64,000 nucleotides of DNA from Metallyticus violacea (Eukaryota; Arthropoda; Insecta; Mantodea; Metallyticidae), in contig CM060846.1 of NCBI GenBank assembly GCA_030762175.1, positions 240,757,012-240,821,011 of the forward strand. Reading direction: 5' to 3'. Made by a program: the position numbers and the translations under genes. How positions within the stretch are numbered: position 1 is the first letter of the stretch; every line of letters starts with the position of its first letter. Positions 20,777 through 63,845 of the stretch are shown in pieces. The notes under the pieces were generated by a model. The model was not told where the DNA came from. It ran no database searches and was given only the letters and a program-made list of their open reading frames with translations.

Positions 20777-20990
20777 GATATTATTGTATGATTTAGTTGA
20801 TCTACACACTCTTAATACTTCACTTATTTGTCATAATATATATATATATATATAGAACCAAATGTTCTCGAAACTGGTTCAATATATATTATGACAAGTA
20901 AGTAAAGCATTAAGAGTGTGTAGTTCAACTAAATCATACAATAATATCAATATATGATTGGTTTCACTGTGCAAGTTCCAATTTACATTT
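20777..20990 (+). mobile_element. Palindromic hammerhead-related element 1
   Basis: Arms of about 70 bp (20777-20858 and 20879-20948) are inverted copies with several mismatches. The centre contains TGTTCTCGAAACTGGTTC, the 3' half of the hammerhead core. The unpaired 3' tail has TTTCACTGTGCAAGTTCCAA, shared with the element at 35352. An (AT)n run expands the left arm at 20836-20854. No clear target duplication. Confidence 0.8.
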
Positions 20991-21036
20991 TAATTTTGTC
21001 ATATTATTTAATATATTGTTATGAAATAATTTCATT

Positions 21037-21088
21037 TACAATTTACAAAATAAATATTTTCAAAATTTACAAAATAAATATTTTCAGT
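21037..21088. repeat. Small tandem duplication
   Basis: The unit ATTTACAAAATAAATATTTTCA is present twice in tandem. Confidence 0.8.
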
Positions 21089-21399
21089 GTTAAAAGAAGA
21101 AAGTTGAAGTATGAAACCTGAGCAATTTTCCAAAATATTTATAAAATAAATTCAACACAAATCTTGAATACAATATGACCAATTTTCTACCACCAGTGGA
21201 AACCTTTCATAATACTGATTGAAATAAACAATACATTTTTAAAACTCAAATTAGGCTTGAATACTGTTACTGCATATTTTGTGTTATCTCTCTTGTTGAC
21301 AATTTCACTACTGATCCTGTTTCTTCTTTCACACTTCACAAGTATATATACAGGAAGAAAAAGAGAAATGTGGACAGAATTTTGAGAAATAGTCAAATG

Positions 21400-21720
21400 T
21401 CAGTTGGAAGATATGCATAGAGAGAGCTTATGAGCAATGATGGAAAGAAGAAATGTTTCAAATTATATAAGGATTTTGGAATGAATGATGAAAACAGATG
21501 CATATCGAGAAATGTAATAAAGATGAAAGAAAGAGTATTGCATGTTTAAATTGGAAATATTCAGATTGAAAGGTAGATGCGCTATATGCCAGGAAAAGGA
21601 TGCAATCCATGAAAGCAAGGGTACTGATATCTGGAGGAAAGAATTAATCCAAAATAAATGGGTGATAGTGGCAAATAATAACAATCGAAAAAATATTTTA
21701 TCAACAATTTAAGATTAACA
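21400..21720 (+). pseudogene. LINE 3' fragment
   Basis: The plus strand reads FRLKGRCAICQEKDAIHESK and then IWRKELIQNKW. This is a zf-RVT-like C-terminus with an altered Cys pattern, as in the other LINE copies here. 5' truncated. Confidence 0.5.
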
Positions 21721-22149
21721 GTTCAGGAGAGTATTCATTTAGCATAAAAAATGCATTTGGTATCCATGAATCAATCAGTAAATGTTCATGTATGATAAAT
21801 TATTTTATATAATAAATCAAAATTATATTATATAGCAGAAATTAAATTTTAACAGGGAGTTAAAAGAGATAAGAGATTAATTTATTATTTATTTATGTGT
21901 CTTGGGAAGAGCTAGGTTAGCTCCATGCCTATGAACATTGTATTCAGTTTATTGCAAATAAATAAATATACAAGAACAAACTCAACCATCAATACACATC
22001 ATATTGCATGAAATGGAAATATAGGTAACTGTTTGCCCAGCTCATCTAACTACAAAATCGATGCTTTTTTAGTAAGGCCCTTTCAGATATACAGTGAACT
22101 TTAGTTCAAGCATATACAAACACAAGGTGAATATCCAGATCCTGCATTT

Positions 22150-23708
22150 TGAATTAGAATTTATTACACAATTAACTTTACAATTTGTTACATCAATATA
22201 CTCTCAATTTACAATAACAACTATATATTTACATACATTATTAACCTACTTTTTTTACTCTAGATCTTAGTAGCATCCTCCAAAATACAAGTTCCTATCT
22301 TGTTAATCATATCTGACTGTAAGAAAAACTTTTTTCCTATTTCATTTCCACTTCTTCTTAACTTTACCCAAAAATTCTCGCATTTTCTGGCTGTTTTTTA
22401 TACTCTTGTTACTTAACATTTTATTTAACATTAAATTCTTCTGTAAATCGTACATTTACTGTCCCAATTTTTTTTCTGCTACCATTTGACTTTCTTGCAT
22501 TCAAATAAATAATGGGACACACTGACTATCCCCCCCCCATATGCCTATCATTATCATCTCCTATTACTCCTGTACGCATCCACACTCAATCCATCCCTCC
22601 CATTCCATAAAAAATTTCAATATATTTCTCGTGTCCCCAATTCTGTTTGATTCTTTTATATATGACCAAAGAACTTTTATCATCTAAACTAGTCCAAATC
22701 TCTTGCTTTTCAATATATTCTATCCTCTGTCTCACTATCTTCCAAAATCCATTAACATTCCTTACACCCAAACCTATCTCTTCTAGATACCTTCCCTACC
22801 TCCCCATACCAACTCTTCCTTCCCAAATTCTCTTTTTGATATTTCAAACATTTCTTGAATATATTTGAGCTGTCTAATTTGAGGATATGATACCAATATT
22901 TCATGACTCTCTCTATAATTAGTCCTTTCCTTCCCATCCTTCCTATTCAATCAAACTAACACCCTTCTGAGAACATTTGGGTAATCTCAACACTTCCCAA
23001 CAAAACATTCTGTGTGCCACATTCACCTTCCTCCACCCCTCTTCAACTTCCCAAACCTTGACTACATACAACATCCTTGCTTGTACCACTACCTCATATT
23101 CTCTGTCCAATCATTTCACAGGTAATGTTGCACTCCTATATAAACTTATTCTGATAGTTCTCTCATCACCTGTTTGCCTTTAACTTGCACACATTTTACC
23201 TGTGCTTTCCATCTTCCATTACTTGCAAATCTCATCCCAAAGTAACCAAACTACTTCAACTGTTTCACCTTGTATATATCATTTCCCATCTTTCCTTAAC
23301 ATTATACCTTTTTTTAAATACCATTATCTTTGATTTTTTCCTATTTACCCTTAACCCCCATCCAGCACAATATCTACTAATCTCATTAATAGCTCCCTAT
23401 GTCCTATCACCATTATTGCTCCTATTCTAAGATCATCCACTAACAATGTCTATTTCTATCTCTGATCCTTTCAATAATATCATCTATAAATAAATTAAAG
23501 AGTAGTGGGCTTAATCTGCACCCTTGCCTCAATCTAATATTTTGGGTTGTATAATCTGTGATCCTATTTCTTAAACAACTATCACAAAATCAATTACATC
23601 ATATAATCTTTGTAACCCCAGCAAGAACTCATTACTCACTCCTTTTCTTCTAAACCAAGGTGTTCCTATTTATTGCATTATATACTTCCTCAAAATCTGC
23701 AAACATCA
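22150..23708 (-). pseudogene. LINE relic, RT to C-terminus
   Basis: RT motif A appears as MFADFEEVYNAINRN at 23660-23708. Further down come a region like DLRIGAIMVI near 23420, KGLIIERVMKYWYHILKL (22880-22937) and GVRNVNGFWKIVRQRIEY (22710-22771). The KG-x-I-x-ER-x-x-KY block matches the LINE at 10900-15416. The upstream part is missing, cut where a Penelope-like copy on the opposite strand starts at about 23709. Confidence 0.65.
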
Positions 23709-24290
23709 TTTTGGCTCCAGTAAACAAATGTAGTTTAAAAAACCTCCTAAAAACGAACACAAAAGACAAAATTCCTCCAGAAAAACAATCAGGCATTTAT
23801 GAAATTGCTTGCAAAGATTGCAATATGAAATATATAGGCAAAACAAAAAGAAATATCTCCATACGGTTTAAGGAACACATGAGACATGTAAAATATAAAC
23901 ACATGGAAAAATCAGCAGTGGCAGACCATTTCTGGCAAAAGAACCACGAATTCCAAAAGGTACCAAAACTCTTAAAAGCTCTTCAAAAACCAATAGAATT
24001 GACAGTGTGGGAAAATATATTCATAAATAAAAACAAAGAAAAATTGGTTAATTTTGATCTCCCAAACAATAGCAACCTTATCACAAAGTTCATAAAATCT
24101 ACGGAGCAACATCTGAATACCACGCGGGGAAGCAGACATTGGGATCATGCTGACGATGAAGGCAACCGCCTTTGAAACATGTCCAAGTAAGTGGAACTAA
24201 ATTAGTGAAATTTGAGTGATTTCCTCAATTATAATTTGTTATGTTATACTATATTTCAATGTGAAAATTCCCGCAATTAAAAAAAAAAAA
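23709..24290 (+). pseudogene. Penelope-like GIY-YIG endonuclease, long open copy
   Basis: The open frame 23660-24175 (171 codons) begins in antisense LINE sequence; the element's own sequence starts near residue 17 (LAPVNKCSLKNLLK). SGIYEIACKDCNMKYIGKTK lies at about residues 44-63, then RFKEHMRHVKY, KSAVADHFWQKNHEF and WENIFINKNKEKLVNF. This keeps the GIY-YIG and CCHH residues and is the best-preserved endonuclease in the window. The RT portion is absent. The stop codon lies inside the hammerhead motif at 24150-24183. The apparent start codon belongs to the chimeric junction and is not the element's own. Confidence 0.85.
24135..24200 (+). ncRNA. Hammerhead ribozyme motif overlapping the endonuclease stop
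   Basis: CTGACGA at 24150-24156, extra T, stem II GAAGGC (24158-24163) with GCCTTT (24168-24173) across AACC, GAAAC at 24174-24178, then ATGTC ending 24183. Stem I is weak. The stop at 24173-24175 falls within the motif. Confidence 0.65.
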
Positions 24291-24529
24291 AAAATCAAAA
24301 TTATATGTTTTGTCCATCTGAAAAATCTACCACATTTAAAAATGTAGTGGTATGATTTAAAAATGTATTAAGTTGTGTTCAATATGAAACGCCTTGATTG
24401 TTCCGGCTCTGATTCTTTTGCTTAATTATATATTTTTGTTTTAACATTAATAGTAATTCTATAAACAATGACAAAGCTGACAGGGTTTTAAATAAAGTAT
24501 TTATGGTGTTTCTGCCCTTAAATTTTGAT

Positions 24530-24730
24530 TTATTATTATTTAAATGGCATTTAATGTCCATTTTTACCAATGTGGCATCACAGGTAGTAGACACTGAGGA
24601 TATATCAGATCTGTGTAAACTTTGGAACATGGCCTTTGATGATAACTGAGAAAAAAACTGGAAAAATTCTCAGACAGGAAGATGAACCTGGCAGGATTTG
24701 AACCTCAGGCCTCCTGTTTACAACTGCATT
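24530..24730 (-). mobile_element. SINE-I copy, internally deleted
   Basis: Tail and body at the left (GGCATTTAATGTCC), head at the right with GGATTTGAACCTC near 24695. Part of the body is missing. Confidence 0.75.
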
Positions 24731-25119
24731 CAGGATTTGATGGTCTATTATTTACTATTGGACACTGTTTCAGCAGAATACATAATATCCTAAGAACCTA
24801 TCCTCATTGGAAATGAAAACTTGACTGAAACTAAAAACTTAAGTACTGCAAAAATAACATAAAAACAAACAAATAAATAAACTTTCTAAGAATAAGATTC
24901 TTTATTATTTTGCATTGATACGGGCATATTATGTAAATTTTTATATGAAATATTTTCTAGTTTTACTTGATGCTTATAGCAGAATAGAACATAGTGCATC
25001 CTTTATTGTAACCCATAACCATTTCTGAAGGCAAAACCATATCTGAAAGGTCAATAGTACATTAAAATAAGAAATGATAATTAAGTAAAAGCAAAAGAAG
25101 ATCAATCCTAGACATTTAC

Positions 25120-25372
25120 CTGTATGCTTTTTGGGTTGTGGCCGCTGAATTGGTCTGATTTCTGAAGCTGCTGGAACACTGTTTTCTGCTACACTTGTAG
25201 CAGGTGCACTTCCTTTCTTTGGACTTCCTCCCTCAGTACTCAACTGCTCATATGGTATTTGCTGTGCTTCTGTTAATTTCCGCGGAGATCTGCAAGTTTC
25301 CTCCTCAGCAGGAGGCAAACTCTGAGATTCTGGTGTCAAACGCAATGGCACAGGATGCAAGATTTTTGGATC
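25120..25372 (-). CDS. Reps: Reps exon D: DPKILHPVPLRLTP segment
   Basis: A 253-bp exon with acceptor TTCTTATTAG and donor ATACAG|GTAAAT. It encodes DPKILHPVPLRLTPESQSLP, an acidic and basic middle part (ETCRSPRKLTEAQQIPYEQL), then SEIRPIQRPQPKKHT. The I-R-P-I-Q-R-P-Q-P-K-K string strongly recalls the corresponding part of REPS1 and is probably a proline-rich binding segment. It ends after one base of an Ala codon (G|CT) that exon E completes. No stop or frameshift is present. The bases read past the donor have no coding role. Confidence 0.88.
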
Positions 25373-25454
25373 CTAATAAGAATTCAATTTTTATAATCTA
25401 TACAAATTTATAAGCATACTGATGTTACAAACTCAACTTAACATATGCACATAC

Positions 25455-25547
25455 CTGTTCAACTGCTGACTTGTGAAAATCAAAATTTACAGGCTTAGGA
25501 CCCGGAGATGACATAGAACTAGTGGGCGAATCAACAAATTTTGTCCA
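25455..25547 (-). CDS. Reps: Reps exon C: WTKFVDSP segment
   Basis: A 93-bp, 31-codon exon in phase 0 at both ends. The acceptor is CTTTTTCAG and the donor is GAACAG|GTATGT. It encodes WTKFVDSPTSSMSSPGPKPV and continues to SAVEQ. A W-T-K-F-x-D-S-P-T-S segment after a Ser/Pro linker is also found in vertebrate REPS proteins, which supports the family call independently of the EH domain. Only 82 bp separate it from exon D, against 17.8 kb of repeat-filled intron upstream. Confidence 0.88.
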
Positions 25548-26007
25548 CTGAAAAAGAAGTAACTGTATTAGCAAAAGTTATGCCACTAATCACCCATATA
25601 TGTTTTATTCTCTATCCTCCATTTGATTGACTCATGGAGATTGTCTGAGCTGCTCTATCTTTTGCACCTCCTACTGCCACACAATGCTGATATAACTTTC
25701 TTTATCTGTATAGATTATCAGGACATAAATATTGCATCCTAGTCATTCACATTAACTTTGAGTAATACTTCTCTCACCCATATATTATTTATGCTCTAGC
25801 CTCCATTTAATTTCACATTTAACTCTTAAGTAGTCTCATGGGAGTCACAACAATCCACCAGTTTATATAGTTAATGATATTTCTTTGATGAAGGTGAAAA
25901 TGATCTATCTCACAATACCTTCCTAGAATTTGTAACCCGGCCATGGTTACTGATGATTGAGCAGATGTTTTTACTTGCTATTTTGTTTGTCTTTGGGTCA
26001 GCTTGAC

Positions 26008-26022
26008 CCCCCCCCCCCCCCA
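26008..26022. repeat. Poly-C tract followed by short (CA)n
   Basis: Fourteen or so C residues followed by CACACACA, in the Reps intron between exons B and C. Confidence 0.9.
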
Positions 26023-26169
26023 CACACACAAATAGTAGCATAATTCTGTGTGGATTGCCACTTATTCAGTGTGAAGACAATTTATTAATTTATAAGATGA
26101 CACTTGACATCAATGAGCTTTCTCAATTATTTTTAAAATTGCAAATGTTATTTTAGTTTAAAGTATACT

Positions 26170-27450: not shown

Positions 27451-27744
27451 TCTCTAAGAGTGGTGTTGGTTATTTATCAAATGTATGAATCAAATTCAGC
27501 AGTGAAGTGATGCAGAAGATGGCCACTGGCATTGTTCTTTAGAATAATTAACATTGCAGTTATAAAGTTCAGGTTATTTTCACATATAATAACCCTCAAA
27601 CCACAATGAAAAGGAGATATTTCTTGAGAGAGATTGAATGTGAACTTGTAAAAATAGCAATAACAAAGAGAGCTAAAGACATTCATATTCCAAGGTTTAT
27701 TTGAGCTAGAGTGCTTAAATAGCAAGGAATAATAACTGATGGTA

Positions 27745-29078: not shown

Positions 29079-29295
29079 TTTAAAAATTATATATGGAACT
29101 AAACACAGTGAAGCTAATCAATTTGATTTAATTTTTTGTCATCAAAACACTCTTAATGCTTCACTTACTTGTCATAAAATGTGGTACATGTTTCGAAGAC
29201 CGAGGATGAAGACGAACGTCTTCGAAACATGTACCACATTTTATGACAAGTAAGTGAAGCATTAAGAGTGTTTTGATGACAAAAAATTAAATCAA
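29079..29295 (-). mobile_element. Palindromic hammerhead-related element 2 (perfect 79-bp arms)
   Basis: Arms 29122-29200 and 29218-29296 are identical inverted copies around a 17-base loop. The 12-bp duplication AATCATAATTTT flanks the element (29067-29078 and 29296-29307). The tail CTTCACTGTGTTT lies on the left, so the element points to the minus strand. The centre carries GGATGAAGACG...GTCTTCGAAACATGTACC, a hammerhead with a damaged CUGANGA box. Confidence 0.9.
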
Positions 29296-29654
29296 AATCA
29301 TAATTTTATTTCACTAACCTATTACAGTAGTTGCTCAAAGGGCTGTCCTTCGGCATTCACATATTCCCGTCATTTTTTATGAAATTTGTATTCACAAGTA
29401 AAAGTACTTCCTTTGTAGTCCTTCTAATTCTGCTCTTATATTGTCTTTCAGTTCATCTGCAGTGTGTGGGTTACTTCTATACATTCTATTTTTTAGGGTT
29501 GCGTATAAATAATCATCACATGTTGTAAGATCTGGGGAACTTGCAGGCCTTAACTCTTTGGAAATAATTCTGCTTTCAAAAACCTCCCTTATAGCCTCCA
29601 AAGAATCCAGAATCTTGTTGAAAATATGAATATTGTCTCTCATGATCAGTTAAT

Positions 29655-29955
29655 AGTTTAACTACCACCAATCCCAAGGATTTGGCAATATGGGAAAATA
29701 TTTCTATTTTAAAAAATAAACATAGAGTGATGAATTTTGACATTCCACCAATGGACTTCCTGTTCCGTTATCTAATGGAACCATCAGATGCCACTACGTC
29801 ACCTGTTAGAGTTAGTCAGTTTGCAGCTGAAGATGAGAGCAAATGCTCTTGAAACATGTTCTGAAGAATTAATCAGTTAGTGAAGTTTTAGTGTCACCTA
29901 ATATTGACTCATTTGTATATGTAACAACTTCACTGTTACTAACTTCTTTTAAGAT
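29655..29955 (+). mobile_element. 5'-truncated Penelope-like fragment with hammerhead
   Basis: The end of a Penelope endonuclease can be read (AIWENI-like, then VMNFDIPPMDFLF) and is followed by a hammerhead motif. A tail AACTTCACTGTTACTAAC resembles the 3' ends of the short elements. It interrupts the ITm transposase relic. Confidence 0.7.
29815..29880 (+). ncRNA. Hammerhead ribozyme motif
   Basis: CTGAAGA at 29827-29833, extra T, stem II GAGAGC (29835-29840) with GCTCTT (29845-29850) across AAAT, GAAAC at 29851-29855, ATGTT to 29860 (NUH = GUU). Stem I starts CAG/CTG next to the core, with more pairs beyond. Stem III is again ACATGT. Confidence 0.72.
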
Positions 29956-30449
29956 TACAAATGAAACCTTGCTTCATTAGAAAAAATGATAAATAATGCC
30001 AACATATGATAAATATTGTCAGGATCAACAATACCATCATAAAGGTTCTGTAAAGCCCAATTATAGAGATTTACTTGACTTTAGTTGTATTCCAGTCATA
30101 ATTGTTGGTCTAGAGTAACTCAGTACGGTTTCAATTTTAAAAGTTTGGTAGCTCTAAGGCTTGTGCTACACAATATAAAGATTTATTAGGAGAACGTTCA
30201 AGTGATGTTCCAATACCATCCTACTTTTTATCTGTTAGAACCCAATGTTTAGGCCTACAAACTTTAGAGTTCAGCAAATGCATTTCTTTAAATCTATTGA
30301 CAAGGTCCCTAACTGTACTTCTATGCCAGGGAATCTATCATCTACAAATTGCCTACACACTTGTCATCGTGAATTTGTTTTGATGTATCATACATAAATA
30401 TTCATTGTTGTAGAGCAAATTTTTCAGCCAGCATTTTAAATATCTAAAT

Positions 30450-35045: not shown

Positions 35046-35351
35046 TCAGAATCACATAGAATAAGCTGTTTGGAATGTTTGCGTTAACAGGAATTCGAAC
35101 ATGGTGGCATCACCAACTGGAAGTATACTACTGATAAATGAAAAAAATAAGGGCAATAGAGAATAAGTGACAAGGAGGACCAGAAGTAAGATGAAGCTAT
35201 ATTGATTTGTATATGAGAGGAAATGTTACAGAACTGACAATCTTATTTGGTAGATGGAAGGTTTATTGCAGATAGAAGAAGAAATTGATGAGCATAGTGA
35301 ATCTCATATTATTGGAGATGTGCAGGCGGAAGCAGTTTATATTCCAGTTAA

Positions 35352-35562
35352 TATTAATTGATATCATTGTATGATTCAGTTGAACTACACACTCTTAAAG
35401 CTTCACTTACTTTTCATAAATGTATGGAACCGGTTTCGAGAACATTTCCATACATTTATGAAAAGTAAGCGAAGCTTTAAGAGTGTGTAGTTCAACTGAA
35501 TCATACAATGATATCAATTAATATGATTGACTTCACTGTGCAAGTTCCAATTTACATTTAAG
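35352..35562 (+). mobile_element. Palindromic hammerhead-related element 3 (79-bp arms, one mismatch)
   Basis: Arms 35351-35429 and 35446-35524 match at 78 of 79 positions, with a 16-base loop. The duplication TTCCAGTTAA lies at 35342-35351 and 35563-35572. The loop on the minus strand reads TGTTCTCGAAACCGG, the hammerhead 3' core with stem III ACCGGT. The tail GACTTCACTGTGCAAGTTCC lies to the right. Confidence 0.92.
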
Positions 35563-35599: not shown

Positions 35600-38480
35600 A
35601 CTGGATACTTTATATATCATTCTGATTTGCAATAGGTTGAGGAAAAAAGAGAGAAGGTTGTGAAACTTTGGTTTTGGAACTGCAAAGGAATGTACAGAGG
35701 GTTCAATGGGGGGGGGGGGGTCCTTTAAGGAAATGCTGACTAAGGTAAATATGTTAGCTTTAGGTGAAACATGGTTAGAGCGTAAAGAATGTATTATGGT
35801 TCAGAGTTTTGATTTTATACCCAAACATGGTGTTAGGAATAATACTAAAGGTAGAATTTCAAGAGGTATAGAATTGTTTTTGAGGAATGATTTGATAAGT
35901 AAAGTGAAGGAGAGGAAGTCTGAAATTAATGGGTTAATGTAGGTATATTTATTCAGGAGTGGGATTTGTGCATTGGTATAATTTACAATCTGCCTCCAAA
36001 TTCCAAATTTTACAACCCAGAACTCTAATGAAAAGTGGAAATTAAATTAGAAAATATAAAAATGGAATATTCTTTGATGTGGTTTATGTTAGTAGGGGAC
36101 TTGAATGCGAGAGTGGGCAAATTTACATTTACAATTGCTTGTGGGCAAATTATACTCTATTACTATTTATGGATGCTCTTTAACATCTCAGGTCATCAGT
36201 ATAGTTTATACTCTGTGTAGCAATTATATATTATGCAAAGTTTATGATTTCAAGGTAATTAATATTTTTGTTGCAAATTCACACCTTCCACTTATGGTTT
36301 CGTGGAAATGTGAGAACTTTAGAAGTGGTAAGATGATGCATGTGGTACCAAGGTAGATAGCTACAAGTGGGTTCCTAAGAAGTGTGAGGAATTTTATAAG
36401 ATGTTGGATTCAGTCATGGCTGAATTATGTGTGTATGAAATAGATTTAAAAACTTCTACAGGGGATGTAACTGTTGAGTTATATGAATTTACCCTAAAGG
36501 GATAACAGGTAAATATGATTATGAGAAATAGATGGAAAAATATAGTTAATGATAATTGGTTTGATGAAGTATGTACAGAGATGAGAGCTTTAGTACAGAA
36601 TGCAGTTATTAGATTGTTACTTGAGTATGAGAAACGAGTGGAGGAGAGTTAAAGCTTTAGAAATTGAACATCTAAATGGGGAACAGCAAGTTTGGAAAGT
36701 TATTAATCAGTGTGTTAATGTTACGAAAAGGAATGAATAAGTCTGAACGAATGACTTAGATATTTTCAGAATGTGTTTATTATGGAAATTAAGTGAGGCA
36801 CAGTTTGAATTTGCAATTATATAATAATTATGTAGAAGAGTTGAATAGACCATTTTCATGTGAAGTCTGGTTCTTAAATTCAAGAGGAATAAAGCAGGGA
36901 AATTTATGGTTTACCTAAGTTTAGGAATATATAATTAAAGAACAGAATAGGATTCCTGAAAAGTGGAAAAAGTAATCATTCATTCCATATATAATGGTAC
37001 GGGTATTGAAAAAATATAAACAATTATAGAGGAATTGTTCTATTTAATTTTGGAAATGTTTTTACAGGAATTTTATCTGACAGAATTCAGGATTGAGCTG
37101 AACAAAATAAAAAGATATCTCCTAAACTTAGGTATTCATTTTTTACACTAAACTCCACTTACATAAAAATAAGATACATTTTGGAAGAATCTCCCCCATC
37201 TTCAGTTACTCACTGAACTGCCATTAATCAAAGCGATGGCTAAACACCTGGATGTTCTTGTGACAGTTGGTATGTCTGTTGCTTGAAGTAGGAACTTGAG
37301 TTCATCCATAGGAGGAAACTGAAGTTCATTACGTTTTCTTTATTTTTTAATATGAAAATTTTTTCCCAAGTGGATAATTCCATTGGGTTGTGAAGATGTT
37401 TCAGCAGTTGAACTTCCAATTTTGCTTCATGATTTTTGGTCCAAAAGCGAGCTGCTACTGCTGATTTATCCACCTGCTTAAACCGAATATTCCCTAAAGT
37501 GTTCTTTCCTCCAAATTTCTAAATTTTTCTTTGTTTTGCCTATATAACTCTGCTCGCAATCTGCGCACTTTATTTCATAAATTCCTGATTTCTGTTCTGT
37601 TAGTATGCAATTTTAAGATGTAAAGACTTCATACCAACAGAACAGAACTCACGAATTTATGAAATAAAGTGTGCAGATCGTGAGCAGAGTTACATATGCA
37701 AAACAAAGAAAAATTTAGAAATTTGGAGGAAAGAACACTTTAGGAATACTCAATTTAAGCACGTGGATAAATCAGCAGTAGAAGCTCACTTTTGGACCAA
37801 AAATCATGAAATAAAACTGGAAGTTAAACTGCTGAAACATCTTCACAACCCAATGGAAATATCTAATTGGGAAAACATTTTCATATTAAAAAATAAAGAA
37901 AGACTAATGAGCTTTATAGAAAAGATATCTACTTATAAGACTGGCTTTTGAAAGAGAAAAAGGACAAGGGATATATATTTATAATTAAAAAGTGATAAAT
38001 GAATATTTATTAAAAAAGTGGGGCATATATGTTGCAATTATTGTTTTGGTAAAAGCATATGATAGGATGGTTAGAGAAATGCTTTGGTATAAATTAAATG
38101 AGAAAGACTCAAGTGTTGAATATGATTAAAATATTTCAGGAGATATATGATCAGAACTTATTTTGTGTTAAATGCAGTATTGAAGAGGTAACTGATGTAG
38201 CAAGGCAAGAGAGAGGTCTTAGATGAGGTTGTAAGTTGAGTCTAGTAATGTTCAACTTATTTATTGATGATATCTTGGATTATTTGAAAAAGATTAACAT
38301 TCTTATACCTGCAATTAAAAATGGGGATATTTCAGGGCTACTTTATGCTGATGATCTTGTGGTGTACTCAATATCAGTGATTGGTTTGAAGGGACCCGTA
38401 ATTTTAGTTTTAACCCAATTCACCTTCAGTCCCCATTCATCTTTAGCTTTATTATTGGGACATCCAATAATGTGAATAAG
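35600..38480 (+). pseudogene. LINE relic interrupted by a Penelope-like pair
   Basis: The endonuclease start is LNMLALGETWLERKE-like near 35730-35790 (KVNMLALGETWLERKECIMV), preceded by a 12-G run at 35709-35720. LVGDLNARVGKF lies near 36090-36120, NDNWFDEVCTEMRALV near 36550, and the RT start INNYRGIVLFNFGNVFTGIL near 37018-37078. The element resumes after the insertion: motif B region VMFNLFIDDILDYLKK (38245-38292) and motif C DISGLLYADDLVVYSIS (38325-38378). It belongs to the same family as the LINE at 10900-15416. Frameshifts and stops are frequent. The C-terminus is missing. Confidence 0.8.
37121..37919. mobile_element. Head-to-head pair of Penelope-like fragments with 11-bp duplication
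   Basis: AAAAGATATCT at 37110-37120 and 37920-37930 brackets this insertion in the LINE. The left part (37121-37600) is minus strand: DKSAVAARFWTKNHEAKLEV, an endonuclease tail, a decayed hammerhead near 37215-37175 and the 3' end CCTAAGTTTAGG. The right part (37601-37919) is plus strand: EIKCADREQSYICKTKKNLE-like and DKSAVEAHFWTKNHEIKLEV. The two fragments share the endonuclease region and point away from each other. Both are truncated within the element, and neither carries RT. Confidence 0.88.
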
Positions 38481-44502: not shown

Positions 44503-44701
44503 TGAGTTGTCAAGTTGGTTGAAGACGGACAGCATGTCTCTTTGAAACCGGTCCCACTGTATTTAAAAGTAAGTGAAGCATAAGAGTGTGTTTGACAACA
44601 GATTAAATAGAATTTACATTTAACAAGCTTTACTGTGTGAATGCCAACAGAATATTTTTTAAAAAATTTCTTATAATTTTTCAAAAGTTCTTAAATGAAT
44701 T
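44503..44701 (+). mobile_element. Short hammerhead-bearing element, non-palindromic copy
   Basis: The 12-bp duplication ACCAAAGTTACT lies at 44491-44502 and 44702-44713. The 199-bp element begins with a hammerhead-like motif (TTGAAGA at 44519-44525, hairpin GACA/TGTC, GAAACCGGTC at 44544-44553). It continues AAGTAAGTGAAGCATAAGAG, then CTTTACTGTGTGAATGCC and an A/T-rich end. Its 3' part is the sequence that forms the arms and tail of the palindromic elements. C3 of the core is T, and stem II is asymmetric. Confidence 0.85.
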
Positions 44702-53085: not shown

Positions 53086-53707
53086 CTTTCTTTTAATATT
53101 AATTCAATTTGGAATCGAACACAGTGAAACATCAATTAATAATCTCTTCTGAGTTGGATTTTCAGAATACTCTTAATAGTTTTACTTAAATGAGATTTAC
53201 TCAGGATATATTCTTCATGGAACTACTGTCCACATCATCAGCTGTTAAATGCCTGTTGGATCATTGTTAGGAGCTGGGTAGGTAGGTATCTGAGTTGGCT
53301 CTGGTGGACTAGTGATGAACTTAAATAAAGTACTGTCTGCTTCTAGGATGTTAAATTTCATAAGGTTATGCTCATGTTTTTTTTATATAAATCCTTTCCC
53401 ATATGCTTAGTTCTTTTGGTTATTAAACAGTTTTTAATAACTTTATACCTTTTTCTATTTCATGGTTTTCATTCCAAAAATGAAATGTTGCCAACGGTGA
53501 TTTATCTATTTGTTTGTAACGGATGTTTCTTCTAAGTTCCTTCAACCTAATGCCTATATTTCTCTTTGTCTTCCCTATGTTTATTTTTTCACAATCCTTA
53601 CAATTAATCTGGTAAATACCAGAGTTTTAGTTTTTTTCTTTGGGCCTGGAATCTGTTTTGTTTAATTTCAATACATTTTTTACACTGTATCGGATTTAAG
53701 GTGCTAA

Positions 53708-53708
<1 letters not shown>

Positions 53709-53771
<63 letters not shown>

Positions 53772-53773
53772 TA
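53709..53773. repeat. (GAT)n microsatellite, about 21 units
   Basis: A pure GAT tract inside the head-to-head Penelope pair, next to the start of the left arm. Confidence 0.95.
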
Positions 53774-54394
53774 CTGCTTGAATATTTTTTGAAATTTCTT
53801 ATTGTCTGATGGGTTGTAAGAACTTTTTAAATGTTTTCTCCCTCTGGTAAATCACTCAAAGTTGTTATTTGTTTAATTCTTTTTTGTTTCTGGAATTTTT
53901 AACTTTTTGGTTAATCATCTGTTTGTTGAACCCATTGGATTTGGCTGCTTCTATTATGTGTAGATATTCATTATTATATTCTTCTTTGCTTAGTCATATA
54001 TTTATTAGTCTGTATATCATGCTGTTGAATGCTGCTTCCTTATGTGATCTTGAACTGAAACTATGGCTTTGATATAGTTGTCTGTATGTGTGTCCTTTCT
54101 ATAGATGCCAAATAGATTGAAGAAACATGCATTACAAACAAATAGATAAATCATCAGTGGCAGCATTTCATTTGTGGAATGAAAACCATGAAATAGAAAA
54201 AGGTATAAAGTTATTAAAAACTGTTTAATAACCAAAAGAACTAAGCATATGGGAAAGGATTTATATAAAAAAAACATGAGCATAACCTTATGAAATTTAA
54301 CATCCTAGAAGCAGACAGTACTTTATTTAAGTTTATCACTAGTCCACCAGAGCCAACTCGGATACCTACCTACCCAGCTCCTAACAATGATCCA

Positions 54395-54460
54395 ACATTC
54401 ATTTAACAGCTGATGATGTGGACAACAGTTCCACGAAACATATGTCCTAGGTAAATCTCA
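54395..54460 (+). ncRNA. Hammerhead ribozyme motif with well-formed stem I
   Basis: CTGATGA at 54410-54416, extra T, stem II GTGGA (54418-54422) with TCCAC (54430-54434), GAAAC 54435-54439, ATATGTC ending 54446. Stem I: AG/CT next to the core, an internal loop, then ATTTA (54401-54405) with TAAAT (54452-54456). Stem III is the self-complementary ACATATGT. Confidence 0.78.
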
Positions 54461-54534
54461 TTTAAGTGAAACCATAAACATTGTTCTAAACATCCGATTC
54501 AGAAGAGATAAGTGTTGGACTTACAGAGTCATGT

Positions 54535-56739: not shown

Positions 56740-56939
56740 CTGTAATGAGCCATTAATATTAAGATTAGTGTGCTATTCTATTCTATGAAACAAAATAGTT
56801 ATACTTAATTTTTCTTTAACAAGAAGAATTATGACTTTAAGGTATTTTCAAAAAAAGCGCTTTTGCACATTACATAGTATCATCACATGGTTTCTAAAGG
56901 CCATTAGGGAAATGGATAGACATTTTGAATTCAACTCAA

Positions 56940-57201
56940 TTGAGCAGCAACCCTTCTTGTATATAATCAGGCATCACTTCAGTTACCACTATGTTTAATG
57001 CTACCTTACCTTATAGCTCATTGTTTACTCTAAATTATATTTAATTAATGAGCGATTTCCTTATAAATTCTTGAGCAGCAACCCTTCTTGTATATAATCA
57101 GGCATCACTTCAGTTACCACTATGTTTAATGCTACCTTACCTTATAGCTCATTATTTACTCTAAATTATATTTAATTAATGAGTGATTTCCTTATAAATT
57201 C
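56940..57201. repeat. 131-bp tandem duplication, two copies
   Basis: Copy 1 at 56940-57070 and copy 2 at 57071-57201 differ at only two visible positions (GTTT/ATTT and GCG/GTG). It lies just upstream of Reps exon A, in intron or 5' sequence. Confidence 0.93.
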
Positions 57202-57204
57202 ATC

Positions 57205-58785: not shown

Positions 58786-58794
58786 GACTACCTG

Positions 58795-58995
58795 GACGAT
58801 CTTGACCACCATGATGGCCTTCAGTCAGCGTGTCTGTCTGCAAATTCAGAGGTCACAAGTTTGAATTCTGTAAGGTCAGTTGTCTGGGTAAAGTATTTTT
58901 GAAGTCTTTCCTTAACCTGAAAAGGTGAATGCCAAATAACTAAAGTACTGTAGACTCTGGATTCATTTATGCACTCATTTAATTACTAATTCATT
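58795..58995 (+). mobile_element. SINE-IV copy
   Basis: Head with AGTCAGCGTGTCTGTCTGCA and the B-box-like CACAAGTTTGAATTCTG. Then GTCTGGGTAAAGTATTTTTG, GAATGCCAAATAACTAAAGT and the 3' part ACTCTGGATTCATTTATGCA ending AAAGACCTTTG. Confidence 0.7.
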
Positions 58996-59309
58996 CATCT
59001 CTTTAAAAGACCTTTGTAGTAATGATTGATATTATTCCTACTATAAACATACAAAAAAAAATTAACCTTCTTAGCAGACTATAAGGAACTGCTTCTACAA
59101 AGAACCAAGCCACCGAAGAAAGACCCTTTGGGTCACAATTATATAAGCATACAAGCCGCAGCACAAGGCACACTTCTACAGTGAAAACAATCACAGTAAC
59201 AGCTATTCAACTGATAGCTAAAGCAATATTCAAGTATTTGTTTATGAGCAAAACACAATATATAGAGTATGCATCCCCAAAGGAATACCAATTATTCAAT
59301 AGTGAATAG

Positions 59310-59375
59310 TTAGCTGTGAATGTGATGATCTGCGAAACATGTTCTAGACGTAAACAAGTGGAGCCAATAAGAGTG
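59310..59375 (+). ncRNA. Decayed hammerhead motif
   Basis: TGATGATCTGCGAAACATGTTC at 59322-59343 keeps UGAUGA, the extra U, GAAAC and the self-complementary ACATGT. Stem II is deleted to a few bases and C3 is lost. It probably marks the 3' end of an eroded Penelope-like copy. Confidence 0.5.
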
Positions 59376-59379
59376 AGCA

Positions 59380-60875
59380 GTTCAACTTAAATCACAAAAT
59401 TATCTTAAACATAAACAAATCTCATCAGAACTGTCCAAATTTTACATAGTATTTTCTATAAACTATTTATATTAAAATGCAAAAAAAAAAACATTAAAAT
59501 ATGCAATAAGTATTATATCAGAAATGTGCCAGCTAAATGTTCTAAAAACTTGTATTCATCCTTTATGAAACAAAATTCAGTTTAACATTACTATTAATAA
59601 AATACCTAAAAGAAAATATTGCATTTTTCTAAAAACCATTTTAGACATTAAGATAGTAGCTTAATCCTCAAACTGAAGTAATGGTCATAGAGACCAATAA
59701 GTTATTTGGTTTTATCTGTGTGGCAATACTATTCATCTTCCAGATTTAAATGACTTGAGTAGTTTCTTGTTTGTTCACTGTAAAGTGCTATTCATTAGTT
59801 CCACATGTGTTTAAGTTGCTGCTATCATAACAATTAGCACTTCCAAGAAAAACTGTCAATATATTGTAGGGTTTATGAGACAGATTAACTTTGCATACTG
59901 CATAATTGTTAGTGGTCAGTTCATAGTTATACTTCTAAGAATTGTAAAACGGTAATTATATCTTGCTAACTTTGGCAATAAGAATATATCTTACTAATCA
60001 CAGACTATAAGAGAAGATGATCCTCTATTTAAAGCTAAGTGTGACAATGTTTAGCAAAGTTGAGCGATGAAGATTACTTTGGCTGTGGCAGTGGTGATGA
60101 TGGTGGTGGTGCTGTATTTATTTCCAAAATACATTTTACAAATCTAACTCATCCATTTCGGATTGGTCCTGGGACTATACATGCTTACCCAATACACTTG
60201 AAAATGCACATACCAATATGTAACTCAGACAAACAATGTGTATAGTTAAATAAATAAACGGAAAAAGAAGTCATAAATAATAGAAAAACAAATTAAATAG
60301 CTACATAAAATAAACAGGAAAGAAAACAATATAATAAATGAAGATTTCTTAATTGATGATGTGCCATCAGAGCAAAATGAGATTTTTTTTTCTAGACAGT
60401 GCAAAGCTATTTCAGACAGTAAAACTTACAGTTTAACTTCAAGCACAACTACTGCTACAAACAATCTGGAGCATGAAAAGCCTGTAGATCTAAAATCCAG
60501 AGTTCAGATATTTATTTTGGAAAAAATAGATTTCAGTAAATAACCAAGCAAGTTACAAAGGATTTCTGCACACATTATTATTCAAAACATTACCAGGATT
60601 ACTAGGATCCACCAACTCTTCTGAGATACTCCAAGAATGGGTCTCATTCAATGATAAAATAATTAATAAAATTCAAAAATGATACTTGTATCTGGACAAG
60701 AGAAAGCAGAAAGTATTAAGAAATCAAACAATAGATCCAGAGAAAAAATTTAAATTTTTTAAAATGTTTTTCTGATAATTTCACTGAATAAAGTTCAGCA
60801 TTGCATACAGGTTCTCTCAATGTTTCAATAAATATAGGTGCTGTTTGTAAATAATGTGCTCCCTTTATTGTAGTA
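59380..60875. other. Sequence without a recognised gene
   Basis: No domain or repeat family recognised on either strand. Confidence 0.4.
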
Positions 60876-60879
60876 GTTT

Positions 60880-61190
60880 AATACTGAGGCATCACAGGTG
60901 GTGTTTAATAGTGCTTAGTATCCTTTTTAATACTTAGGCATCATGAAGATGGACACTGATGATGCACAAGATAAAATGATAAATCGGGGAAGGATTTTTT
61001 TAAAAAAAGGAAACGTTTCTGGTTTCAATTCAGGTCACCTCTCTGGCATTTGCCATTTATGAGAACTGAGGAAAACCTGGAAAAATCCTCAGTCTGGAAG
61101 AGCTATGCTGGTGGGAATCGGAATCAAACCACAGACCTCTCACTTATGAATCTGTCACTTAACATCCTTGGCCACCTGTGGCAGTCTCTT
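60880..61190 (-). mobile_element. SINE-I copy with partly duplicated tail
   Basis: The tail block GAGGCATCACAGGTGGTG is followed by a second tail block (TTAGTATCCTTTTTAATACT and GGCATCATGAAGATGGACAC). The body and a decayed head (GAATCAAACC near 61120) follow. Minus orientation. Confidence 0.75.
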
Positions 61191-61229
61191 TTTTGTAATA
61201 TTTATTTATTTATTAATGAAATGGCAGGA

Positions 61230-61615
61230 TTTGACAATAATGTAATTTTTCTTCTAGCTTCCCAGTACAAGCTGAATAAATCCTGTTTTGCTTGAGCCTC
61301 AGAGTTCAAATTTGGGTAATATAGCAAATGTTGTTGGTTCATTTCTTGTTGAAGGTCAGCAGAAAGTGGGTAGTTGCTGGATGTATACGTTTCCAAACTA
61401 CAGAGGTAATGTGGGAGAGTCATTTCCAGACATGTCAGAATTCTGTCATGGGTTTTTTACTGCTCTTAAGTTTAATGTGGTTTGTAAGTTCTTTAGTTTC
61501 ATTCTAGTTTCATTCCATTGCTTTCCTTTTGCTGCTTATGGTTTTCTACAGTATTTATAATGTCCCATGTATTCATTACTTTATCTTCCTTCTGAGGTGC
61601 TGTTCAGGACTTACT
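61230..61615 (-). pseudogene. RNase H LINE, 3' part, left of the mariner insertion
   Basis: The frame 61202-61423 includes LNSEAQAKQDLFSLYWEARR, the C-terminal tail that in RNase H LINEs follows the nuclease and carries the last zinc-like block (here decayed). It continues the element at 62369-63000; removing the mariner-derived insertion and one TA joins the two parts in the same orientation. Confidence 0.6.
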
Positions 61616-61616
61616 G

Positions 61617-62367
61617 GTACATCCAGAAAGTAAGTCCCAATCGCGCCTGGAGATGGAACCACTTGTCGGATAGGAATGCGCATGCGCAGGAGTAGAGAGG
61701 AAGTATATGGAAATAATGCAGTAAAATTTCAGCCTTGTGACGGGCGTGGTTACCGCCCTGTGCTAGGAGAAAATGGCTGCTCTGATATTGTTTCCCGCCA
61801 ACTGCGAGGTTCGTCCAGTCATCCGAGGTTTGCTCGCTCAAAAGCAAAGTCCAGCAGAGATCCATCGCCAATTGTGTCGAGTGTATGGACACGACATTAT
61901 GGTAAGACGGTGGTGCAGGCAGTTCACTGAAGGACGAACCAATATTCACGACGACCGTAGTGGCCGACCGTCCCTGGTGACGGCAGAAGTGTTGGAAAGT
62001 GTGCGGCAAGCAATTGAGCAGAACCGGCGCTTCACAATTTCAGAACTCTCTTGTCAATTCCCCAGATGTCTCGCTCCCTTGTGCACGAAATTGTCTCCCG
62101 GAAGCTTGACACAATTGGCGATGGATCTCTGCTGGACTTTGCTTTTGAGCGTGCAAACCTCGGATGACTGCACGAACTTCGCAGTTGGCGGGAGACAATA
62201 TCAGAGTACCCATTTTCTCCTAGCACAGCGCGGTAACCACGGCCGTCACAAGGCTGAAATTTTACTGCATTATTACCACATACTTCCTCTCTATTCCTGC
62301 GCATGCGCATTCCTATCCGACTAGCGGTGCCATCTCTAGGCACGATTGGGACTTACTTTCTGGATGC
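61617..62367 (+). mobile_element. Mariner-derived element with about 260-bp inverted ends
   Basis: Left end CATCCAGAAAGTAAGTCCCA after a TA; right end TGGGACTTACTTTCTGGATG, then CCG and TA. Inverted similarity runs about 61617-61878 against 62107-62367. The plus-strand frame 61773-62110 starts MAALILFPANCEVRPVIRGL and continues SPAEIHRQLCRVYGHDIMV, FTEGRTNIHDDRSGRPSLVT and RRFTISELS. This is the N-terminal helix-turn-helix region of a mariner transposase. The catalytic domain is gone; the right arm is an inverted copy of the element's own first 260 bp. Confidence 0.88.
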
Positions 62368-62368
62368 C

Positions 62369-63000
62369 GTAATATTTGAATCTGGATTCCAATGGTATCT
62401 GCCATTTCATTACCAACTATTCCAATGTGAGATATTTATTGGAAGCCTATCCATTTTTCTGATTTTGGAGAAATTATAGTAGTGTTCAGTATTCTCTTAC
62501 ATTCATTCTCTAACTTTAGGACTTTGTTTTGAGTGACAGCTTGAATGGTGGCTTTGAAGTGTACTAGAATTATTACTTTATGGAATTTAGGTAGGTTGTA
62601 TGATAGATTTCAGTTTTGATTTCTTCATTAAAATGGAACTGTTGTTGCCAAATGGTAAATAGTGACTGAGCAATTTGGCATATATACCACATCCTTTATT
62701 ATTGTTGCCTTTTATTTCTGATCTCTCTGTGTATATTATTAACCAACCATTCTGATTCTGGATGCTCTAGATTATTTCCCCTAAAGTGACGTGTTTTGCT
62801 TTGTGAGGTGAATTATCATGTTTCTTTTCAATATGATACATTGTGACAGATGTGTTGTATTGTTGATAGTCTAATGGATTTAAGTCTAGGGATAGTTGGC
62901 TGACCTTATCAGATAGGTTATATTTCCTAAAAATAGCTGTTTTGTGCATAAATATTGGGTGGCCAGTTTTTGTACTGCAGAGCTGGAAAGTTGTAGTGTT
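62369..63000 (-). pseudogene. RNase H LINE, nuclease part, right of the mariner insertion
   Basis: Minus strand: KNWPPNIYAQN, then LIIYTERSEIKGNNNKGCGI near 62650-62740 (RNase H start, with the DGS decayed to ERS). SDSQAAI-like and LKSKVRE-like sequence near 62520-62590 and a SHIGI-x-GNEMAD-like end near 62400-62440 follow. It is separate from the RNase H LINE at 45700-47170. Confidence 0.65.
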
Positions 63001-63845
63001 TTCTTTTCTAATTCTTTCTGGATTGGGTGTCCTTCTTTATAGTATTACATTATAATTGCTGTCATTATTATAATATGTGTTCATATTAATTTATATAATG
63101 TGTTATATTTCATTTATAGCCCCTGAGCTTCATAGGACAATTAAAAAGTATTCATATTTGAAAAATCTTAAGTTACTGTACTAAAATCAATTACTTGAGC
63201 AGGAAATAAATTTATTAATTAAATCTGTCATCTAACACTCTTCATGCTTCACTAACCTTAAAAATATTCGGTACCGGTTTCAAAGATCTTTAAAATAGGT
63301 ACCGAATATTTTTAAGGTTAGTGAAGCATGAAGAGTGTTAGACGACAGATTTAATTCATGTGAGCTTCACTGTGTTAGTTCTGTATGAAGAATTTTTTAA
63401 AGGTTTTACGATTTTTAAAAAAATTTAATTAAATAAATTCATTGTTTCAAGAACATATTACAGTAGTATATCTTGCAATAAAAATATTTTCCTAAATCAT
63501 TTACACATTAATTGTTATGTATGCAGAACTGTAAAGTTGCAGTGCTTTCTTTCTGGATTGCGGGACCCTTCTTTATAGCATTTCATTATAATTTTATATT
63601 ATTATTATCATCATATGCATTCATATTAATTTATATAATGGTGTTATATTCCATTTATAGCCCCGGAGCTTCATAGAAAAATTAAGTATTCACACTTAAA
63701 ATATCTTGGTTAATATAATCAAATCAATTACTTGAGTAAGAAATAAATTCCTTGTTTTAAGAACATATTACAGTAATATATCATGCATATAAATGTATTT
63801 CTCTAAATTACTTACCCATTAATATTAAGAAGGTTAAGTATGCAA
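62977..63845. repeat. Diverged tandem repeat, about 320-bp unit, two copies
   Basis: Copy 1 is 62977-63524 with a 218-bp palindromic element and its 9-bp duplication inside. Copy 2 is 63525-63845. Shared blocks include TTCATATTAATTTATATAAT, TTTATAGCCCC-GAGCTTCATAG, AATCAATTACTTGAG and AAGAACATATTACAGTA. Confidence 0.85.
63213..63430 (+). mobile_element. Palindromic hammerhead-related element 4, with empty site nearby
   Basis: Arms 63217-63275 and 63298-63356 (59 bp each, one mismatch) enclose a 22-base loop. AAATAAATT flanks the element at 63204-63212 and 63431-63439. The minus strand at the centre reads CTTTGAAACCGGTACC (stem III ACCGGT). The tail AGCTTCACTGTGTTAG lies to the right. The second tandem copy has the uninterrupted site (GAAATAAATTCCTTG), which fixes the element's ends. 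Confidence 0.93.

What the first reader, a model, noticed from the sequence alone, without database searches (positions are those of the whole stretch)
20777..63430. A family of about 215-bp fold-back elements centred on the hammerhead
Elements at 20777-20990, 29079-29295, 35352-35562 and 63213-63430 are inverted repeats with 59-79-bp arms (one pair identical over 79 bp, another with 78 of 79). Three have 9-12-bp target duplications. The axis of symmetry always falls at or next to GAAAC-NN-GU, the 3' half of the hammerhead. Each has a single unpaired tail with TTCACTGTG. The non-palindromic copy at 44503-44701 has the same downstream sequence behind a hammerhead. The palindromes therefore look like downstream sequence copied back on itself at the ribozyme, as if cDNA synthesis reached the cleaved RNA end and folded back or switched template.
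Basis: partly seen in the sequence, partly recalled or inferred. Interest (0 to 1): 0.88.

Follow-up and report, generated by a model that had tools for sequence, protein, structure and literature searches.

The report
Head-to-head Penelope retrotransposon ends
Four short mirror-image DNA elements in this stretch are end pieces, with part of a ribozyme, of jumping genes (Penelope-like retrotransposons) set head to head, and they likely arise anew at insertion when copying starts on both cut DNA strands and the copies fold together, often within the ribozyme sequence but not at its predicted self-cutting point.

Summary
In detail: four ~215-bp palindromes (arms 72-84 bp, 93-99% complementary), each with one unpaired TTCACTGTG tail. 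They are not a separate fold-back family but head-to-head pairs of the 3' end (pseudo-LTR plus minimal hammerhead) of GIY-YIG Penelope-like elements (PLEs); in three of five families searched genome-wide, long copies carry the endonuclease ORF just upstream of the same end. In 43 mapped pairs from two young families the inverted arm ends at a fixed site B in 37 of 43, about 35-47 nt short of the tail-bearing end A. One target duplication usually flanks the composite (20 of 25; 19 of 22 against 7 of 231 in a swapped control). Both arms share private variants in 5 of 22 and 4 of 9 pairs of two families, pointing to one template and separate origins. Arm ends run from +25 to -329 nt, concentrate in the ribozyme's stem-loops, and avoid favouring the cleavage nucleotide (5 of 86 within 2 nt). 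The cleaved-RNA-end idea fails; fold-back or microhomology joining survives. Inverted pLTRs with a tail are known PLE anatomy; the junction map and same-template evidence are what is added.

The parts
20767..21005 (+). E1: head-to-head pLTR pair; arms 20772-20843 / 20882-20953, GAAAC loop upright, tail with TTCACTGTG at 20963
   Evidence: target duplication weak, so outer ends are approximate
29080..29296 (-). E2: head-to-head pLTR pair; arms 29117-29200 / 29218-29301, tail on minus strand; GAAAC on both arms; hammerhead-like motif CCGAGGA...GAAACATGTA at 29200-29233 (+)
   Evidence: family copies
35352..35562 (+). E3: head-to-head pLTR pair; arms 35351-35429 / 35446-35524, GAAAC loop inverted relative to the tail; target duplication TTCCAGTTAA both sides
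   Evidence: family copies
63217..63430 (+). E4: head-to-head pLTR pair; arms 63214-63286 / 63287-63359, axis in AAAGATCTTT (stem II by position), orientation ambiguous; 12-of-13 target duplication
   Evidence: family copies
44503..44701 (+). E5: single (non-palindromic) pLTR copy with hammerhead 44519-44553 (core TTGAAGA), downstream segment and tail; target duplication ACCAAAGTTACT
   Evidence: family copies
59309..59440 (+). N59: diverged single pLTR copy with hammerhead-like motif (GAAACATGTT)
19018..19524 (+). PLE remnant: GIY-YIG endonuclease (tblastn 19018-19441) followed by hammerhead 19492-19524
   Evidence: (PF01541, below cut-off)
23666..24300 (+). PLE remnant: GIY-YIG endonuclease (23666-24166), hammerhead 24150-24183, pLTR
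   Evidence: (PF01541, above cut-off)
29661..29960 (+). PLE remnant: end of endonuclease 29661-29819, hammerhead 29827-29860, pLTR
37120..37921 (.). Head-to-head pair of 5'-truncated PLE copies with axis inside the endonuclease ORF (37607-37609), not at the hammerhead
   Evidence: (I2, I3)
53096..54512 (.). Head-to-head pair of PLE copies: tail-bearing copy on minus (53096-54116), tail-less copy on plus (from 54121, hammerhead at 54410); heads unequal

Best explanation
The four palindromes are head-to-head pairs of the pseudo-LTR end of GIY-YIG Penelope-like retrotransposons, each likely made anew at insertion by reverse transcription primed on both cut target strands and closed by fold-back or microhomology joining at the heads. 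Shown by sequence: in family copies one arm ends at site A (with tail) and the other at site B (35-47 nt short of A in the two families mapped), one target duplication flanks most composites, and in nine loci both arms carry the same private variants. Inferred: the endonuclease nicks both strands with a stagger of about 9-18 nt; one strand primes cDNA at A, the other at B, on the same template RNA; both cDNAs run into the pLTR, and in the pairs mapped here most end in or just 5' of the hammerhead; the 3' end of one cDNA then pairs with itself or with the other cDNA and is extended. The cDNA copy of the ribozyme's own helices would supply part of this pairing: stem II (16-nt GAAGAC-loop-GTCTTC hinges) and a 7-nt match between loop II and the segment after the cleavage site. 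Ribozyme cleavage is probably not needed. E1-E4 are thus strongly 5'-truncated PLE insertions, not a dedicated fold-back family.
For: PLE identity: endonuclease matches on the same strand 5' of the hammerhead-pLTR in the E5, E3 and E2 families (20 of 41 loci, one of them, L084, more than 1 kb away) and in the window. Fixed ends: inverted-arm end +58..+69 in 18 of 22 (E2) and +71..+81 in 19 of 21 (E3); +61..+72 in 13 of 15 E5-family loci with an inverted copy; query positions 63-69 in 13 of 13 E4-family loci with one; tail-bearing ends with flanks that differ right after. One insertion: at least 9 matching duplicated bases around the composite in 19 of 22 E2-family pairs (7 of 231 swapped control) and 20 of 25 E3-family loci (no control run). 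Same template: shared private variants 8, in 5 of 22 pairs, vs null mean 0.45, max 2 of 300 (E2); 4, in 4 of 9 pairs, vs 0.23, 0 of 500 (E5). Separate origin: 0 shared left/right differences between window elements against 7-26 sites that agree within and differ between. Joining: overlaps of at least 6 nt in 15 of 43 joins vs 0.8% of random joins; heads within 20 nt of each other in 26 of 43; either arm can be longer (19 tail-less, 17 tail-bearing, 7 equal). In vitro a Penelope protein cleaves and extends both strands, starts at two sites that bound the 'tail', and inserts with hammerhead mutants as well (PMC11167929, main-text section read).
Against: The pairs were filtered to inverted-arm ends between +25 and +82 (E2) or +95 (E3), so 'none at A' holds partly by construction. 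Looking back at all 55 loci with a partner (30 of 41, 25 of 30), one, L058, has an inverted copy reaching A (+112); it is only 83% alike, 149 nt away and without a flanking duplication, so I took it for a separate insertion. E3 family gives no same-template signal (1 shared rare variant vs 0.17; arms 0.982 alike, different loci 0.985), and E2 arms differ at 44 sites in total over 22 pairs. The correlation of the two heads (Spearman 0.55) is not significant among the 14 pairs with a head beyond -60 (0.34, p=0.23). Seven of 21 E3-family joins are identical and could be copies of one palindromic source. Near-equal heads far from the ribozyme (-313/-329, -270/-279, -237/-253) suit self-priming of one cDNA at least as well. 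Fillers of 2-57 nt sit in 14 of 43 joins. A 53-54-kb PLE pair shows a patch of arm homogenisation. Dual priming on one RNA is not shown anywhere. E1- and E4-family membership in PLEs rests on pLTR similarity (no upstream ORF checked).
Confidence: 0.68

Rival explanations
1. Self-priming alone: one target-primed cDNA reaches its end, snaps back and copies itself into an inverted arm (self-priming was proposed for rotifer PLEs, on an antisense template, in PMC3846280).
For: Small head offsets (median 18 nt; 26 of 43 at most 20), long overlaps at the join (15 of 43 at least 6 nt), perfect stem II hinges in L073, L079, L096; shared private variants.
Against: A copied arm should include the tail or run into the target; instead it stops at site B in 37 of 43 pairs, and the only inverted copy reaching A among 55 partner loci (L058) looks like a separate insertion. 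When the longer, loop-bearing arm is the tail-less one (19 of 43), the tail of the other arm has no template.
Confidence: 0.15
2. One reading: cDNA runs off the hammerhead-cleaved RNA and folds back or switches template there, so the axis marks the cleavage nucleotide.
For: Arm ends are concentrated around the ribozyme: 64 of 86 between -60 and +12; E3 (L032), L050 and L046 have one arm starting at -2 or -1.
Against: Only 5 of 86 ends lie within 2 nt of cleavage against 25 between -26 and -11; at least one arm crosses it in 42 of 43 and both in 32 of 43. E2-family cores read CCGAGGA (28 of 41 loci; the rest truncated, altered or not read) and all 23 E5-family cores read have T at the C3 position (19 TTGAAGA), yet 36 of 40 scored E2 copies match the query at 100%.
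Confidence: 0.04
3. One ancestral palindrome was copied as a unit, its arms kept alike by gene conversion and its loop occasionally flipped.
For: E1 and E3 share a loop sequence in opposite orientation; L032/L050 and the seven identical-join loci share joins; arm homogenisation is visible in the 53-54-kb pair.
Against: Many different hinges within each of two families whose scored copies are 94-100% alike; private variants shared by both arms of single loci; no consistent left/right differences among the seven identical-join loci.
Confidence: 0.04
4. Two independent cDNAs from two RNAs, joined by ordinary end joining.
For: Large unequal truncations in some pairs (L066, L100, L039, the 53-54-kb pair); no same-template signal in the E3 family; head correlation not significant among the 14 far pairs.
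Against: Heads within 30 nt in 35 of 43 and Spearman 0.55, p=0.0001 overall (partly due to clustering at the ribozyme); shared private variants.
Confidence: 0.11

Closest known systems
Penelope-like elements with inverted pLTR plus optional tail, e.g. Pen2a_Av in Adineta vaga (PMC3846280; passages and Discussion read)
   Same: Head-to-head pLTRs, palindromes at the inverted junction, a 31-bp tail on one copy only, 9- to 10-bp target duplications, GIY-YIG endonuclease, 5' truncation
   Different: Here many pairs hold only pLTR and part of a hammerhead with no ORF, hinges often fall inside the hammerhead, and dozens of near-identical copies allow base-level mapping of joins
Anolis Poseidon PAc (PMC11167929; main-text section read)
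   Same: Two RT start sites that bound the tail, both target strands cleaved and extended, hammerhead in the pLTR not needed for insertion
   Different: Studied in vitro; the section read does not connect two-strand extension with inverted pLTRs; its hammerhead keeps C3 and G8 and is protein-assisted
Animal (non-LTR) retrozymes (PMC7229834; passages read)
   Same: Short, ORF-less, low-GC, hammerhead-bearing retroelements with target duplications
   Different: Retrozymes are described with type I hammerheads and circular RNAs; these have a vestigial helix III (GAAAC-NN-GU), head-to-head arms and, in long copies, a PLE ORF upstream
LINE-1 twin priming (recalled; PMC2837659 seen in a search listing only)
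   Same: The second target strand primes an extra cDNA, giving an inversion within one target duplication
   Different: In L1 a different, more 5' segment is inverted; here both arms are the same segment and end at fixed sites

Membership tests
Penelope-like element (endonuclease-bearing) | GIY-YIG endonuclease encoded just 5' of the pLTR | tested here: met
   PF01541 at 23654-24175 above cut-off, at 19036-19473 below it; same-strand matches upstream in E5, E3 and E2 (20 of 41) families; not tested for the E1 and E4 families
Penelope-like element (endonuclease-bearing) | Telomerase-like reverse transcriptase in the same ORF | not tested
   Only the C-terminal part was compared; four of the homologues (P0005-P0008) also carry PF26215, which I did not look up
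Penelope-like element (endonuclease-bearing) | Minimal hammerhead in the pLTR (CUGANGA...GAAAC with vestigial helix III) | tested here: met
   6 matches at 5 places vs mean 0.05 in 40 Markov-shuffled windows; first two stem I pairs form in 6 of 6 hand-read copies, background 0.14; cores altered in E2 and E5 families; no Rfam hammerhead hit
Penelope-like element (endonuclease-bearing) | Optional tail bounded by two RT start sites, inverted pLTR, ~10-bp target duplication | tested here: met
   (ends and duplications; that the ends are RT start sites is inferred)
Animal retrozyme | No ORF of its own and a classical type I hammerhead | tested here: not met
   Long copies have the PLE ORF directly upstream; helix III is 2 bp at most
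Animal retrozyme | Circular RNA | not testable with these tools
   no RNA data
Fold-back / MITE DNA transposon | Constant terminal inverted repeats at both ends of a fixed element | tested here: not met
   One end has an unpaired tail, the axis varies between insertions of one family, single-arm copies exist

The most novel reading that the evidence does not exclude
The hammerhead of Penelope-like elements has a second job at the DNA level: the cDNA copy of its stem-loops is the hinge at which a two-strand-primed insertion closes into a palindrome, so the ribozyme sequence is kept as a self-priming and annealing device even in families whose catalytic core has decayed.
Probability: 0.25. Interest if true: 0.82.

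Novelty: new variant of a known kind. Interest (0 to 1): 0.62.

Why it matters
How Penelope elements integrate, why they sit head to head, and what their hammerhead is for are open questions. Young families with many near-identical copies in one genome give a base-level record of finished insertions. It points to two first-strand starts per insertion, one template for both arms, and a hinge that prefers ribozyme helices but not the cleavage site. Each point can be tested with a purified PLE protein.

Tried and rejected
Rejected: the cleaved-RNA run-off (head map); DNA-transposon fold-back (tail and variable axis); retrozyme membership; chance. A reading of mine that arm ends cluster at -46 to -54 because of a distal stem I helix is only partly backed: the complement is 10 nt in the E3 family (P 0.0025) but 6 nt in E2 and E5 (P about 0.19 each). 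I first thought loop orientation alone excluded snap-back; the E4 loop proved ambiguous and the genome sample shows both orientations, so the argument now rests on sites A and B. Rfam found no hammerhead; its miRNA-precursor matches, all below gathering scores, mostly cover the hairpins. Viral contigs gave nothing; the single genome-contig hit (a bacterial MAG) was taken as chance and not examined.

Limits of the counts. The genome search scores only its 40 best candidates, so copies are biased to the best-matching ones. Partners were sought only within about 400-450 nt of the tail-bearing head and heads mapped only to about -450 (E2) or -500 (E3); 11 of the 30 E2 copies run beyond that limit, so 'ends concentrate in the ribozyme' holds for the 43 short pairs, not for every copy. 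E2-family loci are 30 plus 11 picked by hand, mostly because a partner was listed; 12 of the 30 are clean pairs, so 22 of 41 is not a rate. Eight more E2 loci have an inverted PLE piece upstream whose matched end is not in the pLTR. In the E3 family 25 of 30 had a partner; L047, L048, L051 and L058 were dropped before (interrupted, or partner end outside the set range; L058 reaches A). For L038, L057, L060 and L061 I set the inverted-arm head by eye. The references were cut at the element's end, so the tail-bearing ends '+103' and '+114..+119' are partly by construction; that flanks differ right after is seen. E5-family L026-L028 were dropped as near-copies of L025. The profile was built from 13 of the 14 segments it found.

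After checking I lowered the best explanation from 0.72 to 0.68 (filter behind 'none at A', and the non-significant correlation of far heads).
Full report
WHAT IS THERE. The four palindromes are as described. Self-comparison shows them to be related to each other and to the single copy at 44503-44701. The window also holds endonuclease pieces of Penelope-like elements (PLEs): 9847-10356+, 19018-19441+, 23666-24166+, 29661-29819+, 37315-37606- facing 37610-37921+, and 53375-53707- with 53835-54116- facing 54121-54273+ (tblastn with P0001-P0020; PF01541). At the end of four of those ORFs come minimal hammerheads (19492, 24150, 29827, 54410), and at 53 kb and 29.8 kb the same downstream segment (AAGTRAARCATTAAGAGTGT-like) and a TTCACTGTG-like motif follow as in the palindromes. 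A profile built from 13 such segments finds 14 matches in the window with E below 1e-10, no further copy, and nothing better than E 1.4 in the reversed window. So the fold-back elements are PLE 3' ends (pseudo-LTRs).

THE HAMMERHEAD. The motif CUGANGA-like core, stem II of at least 4 bp, GAAAC-NN-GUH gives 6 matches at 5 places in the window against a mean of 0.05 in 40 Markov-shuffled windows. In six copies read by hand the first two pairs of stem I form in 6 of 6, with different bases, against 0.14 for random positions. The E3 family has an intact core (CTGAAGA in 13 of 30 loci; many of the others are truncated inside it); the E2 family reads CCGAGGA (28 of 41 loci) and the E5 family TTGAAGA in 19 of 23 read, with T at that first position in all 23. 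By the usual numbering (recalled) these are U4>C and C3>U. One E3-family locus, L054, has a compensatory change in stem II (GGCAAC/GTTGTC for GGGAAC/GTTCTC) on both arms.

GENOME COPIES. The assembly (2.32 Gb, 310 contigs, unnamed) was searched with each element; only the 40 best candidates are scored each time. First-look candidates: E5 3203, E3 1193, E2 1102 and 979 without the ribozyme part, E4 1327, E1 1380. These may overlap and are not copy numbers. In the E2 family 36 of 40 scored copies match at 100% over 119-121 nt: it moved very recently.

ENDS. The tail-bearing arm ends at one place per family (site A), with flanks that differ right after: E2 in 30 of 30 loci, E3, E5 at about +139 to +148. 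The inverted arm ends at a second fixed place (site B): +58..+69 in 18 of 22 (E2), +71..+81 in 19 of 21 (E3), +61..+72 in 13 of 15 (E5; of the other two one is interrupted and one runs off the locus edge), query positions 63-69 in 13 of 13 loci with a partner out of 40 (E4; one of them has a second inverted piece ending at 54). B lies 35-47 nt short of A in E2 and E3 and about 75-85 nt in E5. One search was filtered for ends below A; among all 55 partner loci only L058 has an inverted copy reaching A, and it is 83% alike, 149 nt away and without flanking duplication. In the published Anolis system the tail is the stretch between two RT start sites, and the protein cleaves and extends both strands (PMC11167929). 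In rotifers the typical Penelope insert has an inverted pLTR, a tail optionally on one copy, and a 9-bp duplication (PMC3846280, passages and Discussion). The match is close.

ONE EVENT, ONE TEMPLATE. Duplications flank the composite: at least 9 matching bases in 19 of 22 E2-family pairs against 7 of 231 with right flanks swapped, and in 20 of 25 E3-family loci; in the E5 family exact matches of 9-15 bp in L006, L008, L010, L014, L029, 8 bp in L012 and one mismatch in L004, L017, L030. Both arms share variants absent or rare in other copies: 8 in the E2 family, in L071, L092, L093, L094 and L096 (null mean 0.45, maximum 2 in 300 derangements), and 4 in the E5 family, in L012, L014, L017 and L030 (null 0.23, 0 of 500). 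Against this, E2 arms also differ at 44 sites in total over the 22 pairs, and in the E3 family the test shows nothing: 1 against 0.17, and arms are no more alike than different loci. Among the window's own elements no site shows the same left/right difference in two elements, while 7 to 26 sites agree within and differ between elements. Hence the palindromes most likely arose separately.

THE HINGE. Heads of both arms were placed relative to the predicted cleavage in 43 pairs of two families. They run from +25 to -329. Sixty-four of 86 lie between -60 and +12, 25 of them in stem II/loop II (-26 to -11), 5 within 2 nt of cleavage, none between -10 and -3. Heads beyond about -450 could not enter this set. 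At least one arm crosses the cleavage site in 42 pairs and both do in 32. In the E5 family symmetry starts 21 to 400 nt upstream in 14 loci and 45 nt downstream in one (L021), with spacers of 5 to 1275 nt. The two heads are usually close: within 20 nt in 26 of 43, within 30 in 35; Spearman 0.55 overall (p=0.0001) but 0.34 (p=0.23) among the 14 pairs with a head beyond -60. Overlaps of at least 6 nt occur in 15 of 43 joins (8 of 36 without seven identical ones) against 0.8% of random joins in the E2 reference. Examples: L073, L079 and L096 hinge exactly on stem II (GAAGAC-loop-GTCTTC), with the loop in either orientation; seven E3-family loci join loop II (TAAATGT) to its 7-base complement at +5 to +11. 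Fillers of 2-57 nt sit in 14 joins. The tail-less arm is the longer in 19, the tail-bearing one in 17, equal in 7.

MECHANISM. Two fixed and different ends, one duplication and shared variants are best explained by cDNA primed on both target strands from one RNA; small offsets and long overlaps by fold-back or cross-annealing at the heads. Pure self-priming does not give site B, and cannot supply a tail to the second arm when the tail-less arm is the template. Whether the concentration of heads in the ribozyme comes from RT stalling at the folded RNA, from template 5' ends at its border, or from helices that anneal well as DNA cannot be told here. Two PLE pairs in the window with axes in the endonuclease ORF, and pairs such as L069, L071, L072, L085, L089 (E2), L055 (E3), L012, L015 and L030 (E5), show that the hinge does not need the ribozyme.

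KNOWN OR NEW. Inverted pLTRs, tails, palindromes at the junction and self-priming are published for PLEs (PMC3846280); two-strand extension, internal starts and dispensability of the ribozyme for insertion are published in vitro (PMC11167929). Searches for PLEs with fold-back, twin priming, head-to-head or template switching (titles and abstract starts only, beyond the papers named) showed no paper that maps PLE hinges on the hammerhead or joins two-strand priming with inverted pLTRs; most subscription papers are not in that library, and Cervera and De la Pena 2014 was not held. I rate it a new variant of a known kind.

Noticed in passing
53375-54512: The facing PLE pair has arms nearly identical in the middle but clearly diverged at the head and in the pLTR (93% overall), as if a gene-conversion patch had homogenised the centre.
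   Followed up: partly
61611-62366: Inverted repeat with 262-nt arms (94%) containing mariner-like sequence (HTH_48/HTH_32 matches below cut-off).
   Followed up: no
8231, 13577, 18365, 34756, 60924: Dispersed ~80-280-bp repeat with a CACTGATGATACATGA-like motif (direct-repeat families D2-D4).
   Followed up: no
38561, 44216, 46816: Repeat with TTTCAGGCTTGAGGTTCTTTTTCATGCC...; the complementary sequence behind a tRNA-like head sits inside L047, so it is probably a tRNA-derived SINE.
   Followed up: no
56940-57201: Tandem duplication of 131 bp, 98% identical.
   Followed up: no
1626-4472 (minus): Remnants of a non-LTR retrotransposon (weak Exo_endo_phos match, RT-like ORFs by eye).
   Followed up: no
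L025-L028 (G000:C17:159473220-159640978): Four near-identical copies of one PLE locus about 53-57 kb apart, evidently a segmental tandem array.
   Followed up: no
L054:1309-1621: Compensatory double change in stem II of the hammerhead, present on both arms of a head-to-head pair.
   Followed up: partly
L076, L091, window 44503: Single-arm copies begin at -46 to -51, near the border of a possible distal stem I helix; a number of tail-bearing heads in the E3 and E5 families fall there too.
   Followed up: partly
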